Positions 29,101-33,275 of a stretch of 64,000 bases of DNA are shown piece by piece. The position numbers and the translations under genes are program-made. Position 1 is the stretch's first letter. Each line of letters opens with the position of its first letter. The notes under the pieces are model-generated. The model ran no database searches and had not been told where the DNA came from. It saw only the letters and a program-made list of their open reading frames with translations. The stretch covers positions 59,719,504-59,783,503 of the forward strand of contig NC_090280.1 in assembly GCF_037392515.1 (NCBI RefSeq), written 5' to 3'. Origin of the DNA: Haliotis asinina (taxonomy: Eukaryota; Mollusca; Gastropoda; Lepetellida; Haliotidae).

Positions 29101-32100
29101 ACATAAGATTTTTGTTCATTTGCAGTAATGCAAATATGGAAATATTGCATAAGCACTGCTTTTTATTGGACAGGCACGTAAATAAATTAATTTCTTACTT
29201 AAGTAGTTTTACATGTAAATAGTATGTGTTAGAATGCTTGCTGAATTAAAAGTGTCATGTGTTGAAATTAAATAGCAGTCTCACATGGTAGGGTGTGGCA
29301 AAAGCGTTCAGTGTTGCGTACCACCATGTGGATATGAGGAAGAAATTGCTGCGCATCACGGAGAGTGCGGTGTCATGGATCCAGCGCCGCAGTCCACACG
29401 TGACTGAGGTGGTGTTCTACATGGTGGAGCCTGATGGGAAAGGTCAGGACTACGTGCTTCGTAAGATGATGATGACAGACAACCGTGGAAACCCTGTCCA
29501 GCCAGAGAACCCAGCTAGACTGGAGAGGAAGGATAACCTGTTTAGGTGGGTTGAGTGAGTAAGGGACAACCCTGTCCAACAGAGAACCCAGCTAAACTGG
29601 AGAGGAAAGATAACCTGTTTAGTTGGCTTGAGTGAGTGAGTGACAACCTTGTCCAATCAGAGAACCCGTCCGGACTGGAGAGAAAGAATAACCTGTTTAG
29701 GTGGGTTGAGTGAGTGAGTGACAATCTTGTCCAACCAAAGAACCCATCCAGGCTGGAGACAGATGACCTGTTCCAGTGTAGTGAGGGAGAGTGTGAGTGT
29801 GTGAGTGTGTGAAGGAAGTAGGGATGGATATGGATGACTAGCATCTGTGGCAAATCTATCCAGCCAGAGAACCCATCCAGACTTTAGACCAAGGAAGATC
29901 TGTTCAGGTGGAGTCTTGTGGGGGTACGTGATTGAGTCACTGAGTTATTTAGTAAAGAGGTGAGTGGAAAGGAGGGAGGGAAAGACGACATGCTACAGTG
30001 CAGGCCAGAGAGGAAGATAATCATTAGGTCTAATGACAGGGGAACCAACCAGACAGCCCAGCCGGCCTGGGTTGGACCCAGCCTTGTGTATCATTGTGTT
30101 AGGTTATAGTTTGGAAAGTATTATATTGCTAATCTCAAAATCTTGTAGGTGAGATTTATATTTAACATGGCAGTCTCCATAGTAACTAATGAATGTTGAG
30201 GTAAGATAACTGTGTTCTATTTGTGGCGTAACAATGATTATTATGTATTGTTATGATATGTGCACTGGTAGGTATCAAAGTAGTTGCTAGGGGTTCAGTT
30301 AGTGGATGTTGCAGGTGTGCGCATGCATTTTGGAAGTTGTGAACCTGTACAGAATAAATAGCCATGATTCTTCAATATGAAGTAGTTATTCGTTGTAAGA
30401 TCTAACAATTGTATTAAGATGAACCACCGTGTGGGTGACCTGAGTCATGACAAAACTGAAATATAAAGAGTAGAACACCCTTGTAAAGATGACCATATAT
30501 TAATGTGGACAAACTATGAGTTAGTATGATCCCCAGGCAGTTGAGACTGAAAATACAATGTGCCATTGAGATGGACATCCAATGATCGGGTGAAACAGAA
30601 AGCGCCCTTGAGCAGTTGAACTGGCGAACTGGATGTCGGCGCTATACAAATGTCTAATATAATATTCATCAGTATTGTTTCTTTATTCAAAGTCTAAAAC
30701 TATGTCTTCTTTTGTTTTTCCAGGGACTATCTGTTCAAGTCTGTGGACAACTCGGAGTCAGTGACAGCTGATGCATATGGTGAGCGACACTTGGCATTCC
30801 CTCTCCGAGACGATCAGGGCCGAGCTGTAGCCATCATCGACATCAGTATTGGCTCGATGAAGAAACTTCCTGCCCATGAGAACAAGGAGGCATTGCGGAT
30901 GCTGAGGCTGCTGCAAATGGCTCACAAAGAAATCGCCTCTGAGTTTGCAGGAGAGGAATCCATGAGAATTTTGGGTAGGGGATCAACTAAATTATGCAGT
31001 GTCACCTAAGCACTTAGCATTGAGTAATTGTTACCATGTATGTGTTGTAAATGTAGCATTATGTTTGTGTTTCTCAGCCTCAGTAAGGACTGCATTCCTT
31101 GATAACCCTTAGGGATTCCAGTGTAGAGCTGGTCCACAGTATCCTCTGCATGTCATAAGGGGTGATTGAACAGATCAGGTACATGATCAAGCAGACTGCT
31201 TGTCATCACACCCTAGTCGTGTGGAGTGTTGATCATAATTTCAATCACTGGTTTGTGTTGTCCAGATTTAATTACCTGTGTCATGTTATATACTGGTAGC
31301 TGAATTAATCAAAGCACAGTTTATTTTACATGTTAACTTTGTTTATGTTGGAGACAAATGTCTGTGGACATTTCAGTGGTTCTACCTTTTGATAGGGCAC
31401 CCCTTTTATTATCTCCAAATATCAAAAATACCTTTAGGAGAGTTTGCTGTCAGTCAGTTTGTGTCCTAGAAAGTGAACTAATTTTAAACTTTGTTGCCTG
31501 TGTGTAGATGCTGAGAAGGATGACAACGCACGGATGGACATAATGTTTGACCGTCTGATGCTGATGGAACTGAGGGAGAATGTATCCAAGTTGGACACCC
31601 AGGCGTACGCTGAGCTGAAGAGTTACAACGAGCCGCCTGCAATCATCCTGGACATCCTGAAGGCCACCATTGCTATCTTCTACCTGGAGAAGGTGGAGAC
31701 AGGGGAGTTTGACGATTGGACCAGAGTGAAGGGGGTAAATATGATCTTATTCGTGTTAGGTAGCACTGATGTTTGACTTGTGAGTCAAACTTGAGTTTAA
31801 GCTTTTTGGGGTTTAAGTGCTTCAAGGATGATAATTCTAAGCCATCACGTATGTTCAGGTTTAATGAGCAAAATAATAATTGGACTCTTTTGCAAGTTTG
31901 AAGCTTGGTATTAAGTTCCACAGCAAAATTGGCCTAAGTATGTCCATTGTGATTGAAATGTTTGGATCAATAAAACAAACTAAAAGCAAAAAGGCTAAAA
32001 AAGAACCTGAACAAAAAAGGCCAAAGTATATTTATAAGAAATTACACTTTCCATATTCATGGCCAAACCATTGTGATAGTGAAAGTGACTAAGTGAGTAT

Positions 32101-33275: not shown

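What the first reader, a model, noticed from the sequence alone, without database searches (positions are those of the whole stretch)
31508..33260. EFCAB5-like protein ends in a dynein microtubule-binding-domain-like region
Seen: after a helix, residues about 1190-1320 read [20 protein letters not shown], then [20 protein letters not shown], then [20 protein letters not shown]. Known (from memory): in axonemal and cytoplasmic dynein heavy chains the microtubule-binding tip has the order '(E)I(K/R)SF..PP..V..V.EAVC.LL', 'W..AK.LLGD..FL..L..YD', 'VSKA...L..WV.AM..Y..V'. Order, spacing and the PP, W, GD and WV landmarks agree. Inference: EFCAB5 may carry a microtubule-contacting module without a motor, joined to GAF domains, an EF-hand and a Dpy-30-like dimeriser. 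I do not know of this being described.
Basis: partly seen in the sequence, partly recalled or inferred. Interest (0 to 1): 0.75.

Follow-up and report, generated by a model that had tools for sequence, protein, structure and literature searches.

The report
EFCAB5 ends in dynein-tip-like domain
A sperm-tail spoke protein (EFCAB5) ends in a stretch that is related to the microtubule-gripping tip of dynein motors but has no motor attached, and the same animal genome carries the same kind of tip on other non-motor proteins.

Summary
Confirmed in substance. The gene is an EFCAB5 orthologue (phmmer E 6.9e-207 to bovine sperm chain 9fqr_Xl). Its last three exons (31508-31734, 32349-32445, 33112-33275) encode a domain related to the dynein microtubule-binding domain (MTBD). 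A two-sequence EFCAB5 profile run on 177,635 PDB sequences returned EFCAB5, then only dynein MTBD constructs (5 of 5, two source proteins; E 0.0046-0.01). Profile-profile alignment: 93.6% over 110 columns; best of 59 shuffles 1.33%. A dynein profile ranks the domain first of 10,426 sequences. Against: no Pfam MT hit; neither EFCAB5 sequence alone finds dynein in PDB; bovine EFCAB5 alone does not match dynein. The protein stops 33 residues after the helix-6 tryptophan: no return stalk helix, no motor. Four tubulin-contact basic positions checked are not basic here. Most likely a fixed docking domain of radial spoke 3. New: MTBD-like matches at 24 other loci of this genome (E<=10; 14 at E<=0.01), 12 next to KY (kyphoscoliosis-peptidase) Ig-like domains. 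No structure was predicted.

The parts
13513..14187 (+). EFCAB5 exon 1 with a start codon and the Dpy-30 motif (right end approximate)
   Evidence: Dpy-30 23.4 bits, cut-off 22; its later part aligns to 9fqr_Xl from 128
16558..19331 (+). EFCAB5 exons at about 16558-16716, 17456-17587, 17905-18060, 19242-19331
   Evidence: aligned to 9fqr_Xl up to about 440; edges approximate
19968..21782 (+). Acidic low-complexity linker, possible exons 19968-20153, 20811-21242, 21624-21782
   Evidence: Open frames; the last two were left out of the 1138-aa query, the first was in it but only its first residues aligned; exon status uncertain
23374..25192 (+). EFCAB5 exons 23374-23574, 23898-24056 (EF-hand [12 protein letters not shown]), 24630-24740, 25064-25192 (edges approximate)
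   Evidence: EF-hand_6 E 7.7e-5, 22.5 bits, below cut-off 25; aligns to 9fqr_Xl from 812
26869..28759 (+). First GAF domain: exons 26869-27042, 27612-27707, 28625-28759 (edges approximate)
   Evidence: Pfam GAF 29.6 bits, cut-off 22.4, E 1.1e-6, over the later part of the domain
29292..30974 (+). Second, GAF-like region and exit helix: exons 29292-29546, 30725-30974
   Evidence: Aligned to 9fqr_Xl; no Pfam hit of its own; called GAF-like by inference
31508..31734 (+). MTBD-like domain, part 1: CC1-like helix, H1 ([13 protein letters not shown]), H2 ([14 protein letters not shown]), start of H3 (DDWTRVKG)
   Evidence: helix names transferred from dynein, not predicted
32349..32445 (+). MTBD-like domain, part 2: end of H3, H4, H5 ([32 protein letters not shown])
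33112..33275 (+). MTBD-like domain, part 3: H6 ([30 protein letters not shown]), tail of about 20 residues, stop at 33273-33275; no CC2

Best explanation
The last ~125 residues before the tail of EFCAB5 are a domain homologous to the dynein heavy-chain microtubule-binding domain, carried on the helix that leaves the second GAF-like region and ending soon after helix 6. Because CC2 and the AAA+ ring are absent, nothing can slide the stalk register, so the domain should sit in one fixed state: a static docking knob. In sperm it most likely packs against proteins of radial spoke 3 and the RS2-RS3 bridge rather than cycling on tubulin. Shown: profile-level homology, absence of motor and CC2, presence of the orthologous stretch in bovine sperm EFCAB5. 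Inferred: fold, fixed state, docking on spoke proteins.
For: Homology. Orthology over most of the protein and presence of the stretch in bovine. Support from other motor-less genes of the same genome with the same module. No motor domain. C-terminus 33 residues after the H6 tryptophan. Contact basics (mouse K3298, K3299, R3342, R3382, named in PMC6125590, one passage read) are D, T, N, Y here and L, L, N, F in bovine. EFCAB5 lies in the RS3 stalk, binds RGS22 of RS2, contacts LRRD1 and STKLD1, and pairs with AK7 through DPY30 to dock on CFAP91 (PMC11779644, passages); knockout mice have reduced sperm motility (PMC12423330, outline and passages).
Against: No Pfam MT hit at E<=10, and the own-genome search with PF12777 lists 25 places at E<=0.001, none of them this gene. 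Single-sequence searches find no dynein: window alone, bovine alone. Bovine alone: E 0.33 with the dynein HMM, E 98 with the KY-only HMM, 0.0027 with the combined HMM; hhalign 1.06% against dynein. The five dynein hits come from only two source proteins. The site before R3382 is lysine in both EFCAB5 sequences (basic there in 2 of 8 dyneins), so tubulin binding is not excluded. The R3342 site is not basic in 5 of 8 dyneins, nor K3298 in 3 of 6, so their loss says little. PMC6125590 also names K3336, which I could not place and did not check. No structure was predicted, and which part of EFCAB5 touches which spoke protein was not seen.
Confidence: 0.6

Rival explanations
1. The domain still binds the microtubule lattice (doublet or central pair) and gives EFCAB5 a static, nucleotide-independent microtubule contact.
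For: Homology to a tubulin-binding domain; a lysine at the start of H6 in both EFCAB5 sequences; axonemal location (PMC11779644, passages).
Against: Not basic at the K3298, K3299, R3342 and R3382 positions in both sequences; in the passages read, EFCAB5 is in the RS3 stalk and the RS2-RS3 bridge, with protein partners named and tubulin not.
Confidence: 0.22
2. Unrelated helical bundle that resembles the MTBD by convergence or chance.
For: No Pfam hit; bovine alone does not match; identity about 23%.
Against: PDB search with a dynein-free profile returns only dynein MTBDs besides EFCAB5, aligned over most of the domain; shuffle, reversal and sliding-window controls are low; rank 1 of 10,426.
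Confidence: 0.08
3. Gene-model artefact: the last exons belong to a neighbouring gene or a dynein remnant and were joined by eye.
For: Exons were joined by me without transcripts.
Against: The bovine chain continues through the same stretch in one protein (1328-1496); GT/AG sites and phases fit.
Confidence: 0.03

Closest known systems
Dynein heavy-chain microtubule-binding domain (within Pfam PF12777 MT; structures 3ERR, 3J1T, 6RZB, 6KIO, 2RR7)
   Same: Order of CC1-H1-PP-H2-W(H3)-F/YD-H5-H6-WV over 110 columns; 31 residues from the F/Y of F/YD to the H6 serine position, dyneins 31-33
   Different: No AAA+ ring, no CC2, stops 33 residues after the H6 tryptophan; contact basics replaced; longer H2-H3 linker than in the eight dyneins aligned
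EFCAB5 (RS3 and RS2-RS3 bridge protein of mammalian sperm; 9fqr chain Xl)
   Same: Aligned over 128-440 and 812-1494 of the bovine chain, E 6.9e-207
   Different: The window copy keeps a clearly dynein-like C-terminus; the bovine one has drifted and has an 11-residue insertion after PP
KY-type (kyphoscoliosis-peptidase-like) genes of the same genome that appear to end in the module
   Same: Motor-less MTBD-like module after a helical stretch
   Different: KY Ig-like domains (PF23265) instead of GAF and EF-hand; 2 residues shorter from F/Y to the H6 serine (29 versus 31)
Seryl-tRNA synthetase-MTBD fusions used to fix the dynein stalk register
   Same: MTBD carried on a non-dynein protein
   Different: Made constructs that include 12 heptads of stalk (PMC6629372, section 5 read); EFCAB5 has only the incoming helix

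Membership tests
Dynein microtubule-binding domain | Profile-level sequence match over the whole domain, beyond chance | tested here: met
   for the window protein; not for bovine EFCAB5 alone
Dynein microtubule-binding domain | Reaches the curated cut-off of Pfam MT (PF12777) | tested here: not met
   No hit at E<=10 for the domain or E<=1 for the 1138-aa protein
Dynein microtubule-binding domain | Six-helix MTBD fold | not tested
   Structure prediction took no new jobs (one exon sent); the spliced domain was not sent
Dynein microtubule-binding domain | Antiparallel CC1/CC2 stalk | tested here: not met
   Stop codon 33 residues after the H6 tryptophan, no room for CC2; an incoming helix aligns with the end of CC1
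Dynein microtubule-binding domain | Basic tubulin-contact residues K3298, K3299, R3342, R3382 (mouse numbering) | tested here: not met
   D, T, N, Y in the window and L, L, N, F in bovine; bovine H1 placement is uncertain; in the dyneins aligned they are basic in 3 of 6, 5 of 6, 3 of 8 and 6 of 8
Dynein microtubule-binding domain | Binds microtubules | not testable with these tools
   Needs protein
Dynein heavy chain | AAA+ motor in the same protein | tested here: not met
   Pfam scan at E<=1 lists GAF, GAF_2, Dpy-30, four EF-hand models and DUF7722 (0.12); no AAA+
EFCAB5 | Near full-length orthology; Dpy-30, EF-hand and GAF in order | tested here: met
   EF-hand under its cut-off. That 9fqr_Xl (deposited name A-kinase anchoring protein 14) is EFCAB5 is my inference from length and domains

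The most novel reading that the evidence does not exclude
The dynein microtubule-binding tip is a domain that animals have re-used outside motors: as a register-free C-terminal knob in a sperm radial-spoke protein (EFCAB5), and, in an expanded family of this genome, on KY transglutaminase-like proteins and in a C15 tandem array, where it may anchor non-motor proteins to microtubules or axonemal partners.
Probability: 0.45. Interest if true: 0.75.

Novelty: new variant of a known kind. Interest (0 to 1): 0.6.

Why it matters
The dynein MTBD is known as part of the motor. Finding it without motor and without CC2 in a sperm-specific spoke protein whose loss impairs motility gives EFCAB5 a testable part: is the old tubulin face now a spoke-docking face, or is there a static microtubule grip in the spoke? 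The KY-type and C15 copies would supply natural MTBD variants uncoupled from ATP. I found no paper naming EFCAB5 together with an MTBD-like domain, within these limits: 68 papers hold EFCAB5, 40 listed, two of them opened; EFCAB5 with 'microtubule-binding domain': one paper, where the phrase is used for dynein f-alpha/f-beta; 'MTBD-like' with dynein: one paper, on TTLL11, not opened; EFCAB5 with 'GAF domain': none; 18 papers, 10 listed, none relevant by title. For KY, (13 papers hold 'kyphoscoliosis peptidase' and 'dynein', 8 listed, none opened). Subscription papers, figures and supplements were not seen.

Tried and rejected
Pfam alone: no MT hit. Single-sequence PDB searches with the window or bovine C-terminus: no dynein. 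Idea that all motor-less copies share a deletion between F/YD and H6: rejected for EFCAB5, which has dynein-like spacing. Idea that EFCAB5 and the KY/C15 copies are one clade: neither shown nor rejected (26-row tree, p-AU 0.525; EFCAB5 on a long branch; D41 and D51 long, D45 mostly empty). The direct EFCAB5-KY profile match is weak, 38.9%. The joined L012 exons gave no Pfam hit at all. A literature search for motor-less MTBDs by general words gave nothing relevant among the 10 of 18 listed.

Full report
What is there. The plus-strand gene at about 13513-33275 is an EFCAB5 orthologue. A protein assembled by eye from its exons (1138 residues, without two of three acidic linker pieces) matches PDB chain 9fqr_Xl (1509 residues) with E 6.9e-207 in two blocks, bovine 128-440 and 812-1494. 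The chain's deposited name, A-kinase anchoring protein 14, does not fit its length and domains. Two other 9fqr names look wrong too: 4583- and 4069-residue chains that match dynein are called a radial spoke head protein and a malate dehydrogenase. That Xl is EFCAB5 is therefore my inference, in line with the paper that holds this entry code and describes EFCAB5 with a DPY30 motif in RS3 (PMC11779644; passages read). Pfam finds Dpy-30 and GAF over their cut-offs and an EF-hand just under its own.

The C-terminal domain. Exons 31508-31734, 32349-32445 and 33112-33275 join in frame with GT/AG sites. A profile of two sequences only, window and bovine EFCAB5, with no dynein in it, was run against 177,635 distinct PDB sequences. 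At E<=10 it returned six: EFCAB5, then 6rzb, 6kjo, 6kjn, 6kio and 3j1t, all dynein MTBD constructs, E 0.0046-0.01, aligned from the incoming helix to H6. These five represent two source proteins, so the independent support is two, not five. hhalign of the EFCAB5 pair against eight dynein MTBDs (mouse, yeast-type and six of this genome) gave 93.56%, E 2.2e-7, 110 columns; 59 column shuffles reached at most score 17.65 (1.33%) and the reversed alignment 0.25%. The dynein HMM ranked the window domain first of 10,426 sequences (2 EFCAB5, 10,000 shuffles, 424 window frames), E 6.6e-7; the second was the window's own exon frame, E 0.00071. In sliding windows over the same protein, 22 of 26 gave at most 2.8%, and only the four that reach into the C-terminal domain gave 54-93%.

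Results against. Pfam MT does not hit the domain, and the own-genome search with PF12777 lists 25 places, none in this gene. Each EFCAB5 sequence alone finds no dynein in the PDB at E<=10. Bovine EFCAB5 alone is not significant with the dynein HMM (E 0.33, rank 4) or the KY HMM (E 98, rank 225), nor by hhalign (1.06%); with a combined dynein+KY HMM it reaches E 0.0027, rank 3. So for vertebrates the claim rests on orthology with the window protein. No structure was predicted.

The wider pattern. Searching the same genome with the EFCAB5 domain gave, besides its own three exons, two weak hits (E 2.6 and 4.5). Both lie downstream of KY Ig-like frames (PF23265, E 5.3e-27 in L014 and 2.6e-59 in L015) and near MTBD-like exons of their own. 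The joined L013 exons hit 27 PDB sequences at E<=10, all dyneins by name, by being chains of over 4,000 residues called AAA+ ATPase, or (6rzb) by source paper; Pfam MT 20.5 bits, below its cut-off 24, and the joined L012 exons hit nothing in Pfam. A five-row KY-type profile hit 73 PDB sequences, 60 shown, all 60 read as dynein heavy chains (one under a wrong name), best E 1.3e-9. A search of the genome with the L013 domain found 38 places at E<=10, which I grouped into 25 loci, one of them the EFCAB5 exon itself (E 1.75); of the other 24, 14 have a match at E<=0.01 and 10 only weaker ones; 12 of the 24 have a KY Ig-like match within 12 kb upstream on the same strand. Eight of the 24 lie at C15:35.28-35.33 Mb without KY match, and L052 shows one more unit there; that unit, joined, hits dynein at E 6.2e-8, 40 of its 44 PDB hits being dyneins (two under other names) and 4 o-succinylbenzoate synthases at E 0.23-0.53. 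In the rows aligned, KY-type, C7 and C15 copies (12 of 12) have 29 residues from the F/Y of F/YD to the H6 serine position, both EFCAB5 31, the eight dyneins 31-33. A 26-row tree does not settle whether the motor-less copies have one origin (p-AU 0.525).

How it probably works. In dynein a change of stalk register moves CC1 and H1 while most of the MTBD stays rigid (PMC6629372; outline and sections 5-7 read). EFCAB5 has an incoming helix but ends 33 residues after the H6 tryptophan, so it has no CC2 and no ATPase; the register cannot be driven. Of the contact residues named in PMC6125590 (one passage read) I placed K3298, K3299, R3342 and R3382; K3336, also named there, I could not place. The window has D, T, N, Y and bovine L, L, N, F; the dyneins aligned are basic there in 3 of 6, 5 of 6, 3 of 8 and 6 of 8. 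A lysine just before the R3382 site is present in both EFCAB5 sequences and basic in 2 of 8 dyneins. EFCAB5 is reported in the RS3 stalk, bound to RGS22, LRRD1 and STKLD1 and paired with AK7 on CFAP91 (PMC11779644), and its loss reduces mouse sperm motility (PMC12423330; outline and passages read). I therefore favour a fixed docking domain on spoke proteins over a microtubule grip; that step is inference.

Verdict. Observation confirmed, interpretation partly supported: a domain homologous to the dynein MTBD, without motor, and apparently part of a larger set of such domains in this genome.

Noticed in passing
L014, L016 (C3:9894000-9913800) and L015, L017 (C16:37763000-37782800), with other loci on C2, C3 and C7: Genes with KY Ig-like domains (PF23265) that appear to end in a coiled-coil and a dynein-MTBD-like domain; 12 of 24 MTBD-like loci outside EFCAB5 have a KY Ig-like match within 12 kb upstream.
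   Followed up: partly
L052, L053 (C15:35281000-35290900 and 35326000-35335900): Array of dynein-MTBD-like two-exon units at C15:35276093-35333605 (eight loci, one more seen in L052), about 5 to 16 kb apart; one unit is closest to DNAH10 in the PDB (E 6.2e-8); no KY match nearby; the rest of the gene is unknown.
   Followed up: partly
PDB entry 9fqr, chains Xl, Hl, Xx: Molecule names look wrong: Xl (1509 aa, EFCAB5-like) is called A-kinase anchoring protein 14; Hl (4583 aa) and Xx (4069 aa) match dynein heavy chains but bear other names.
   Followed up: no
window 19968-21242: Very acidic, E/K/Q-rich frames lie where the bovine protein has its unaligned middle (about 440-812); likely a disordered linker.
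   Followed up: no
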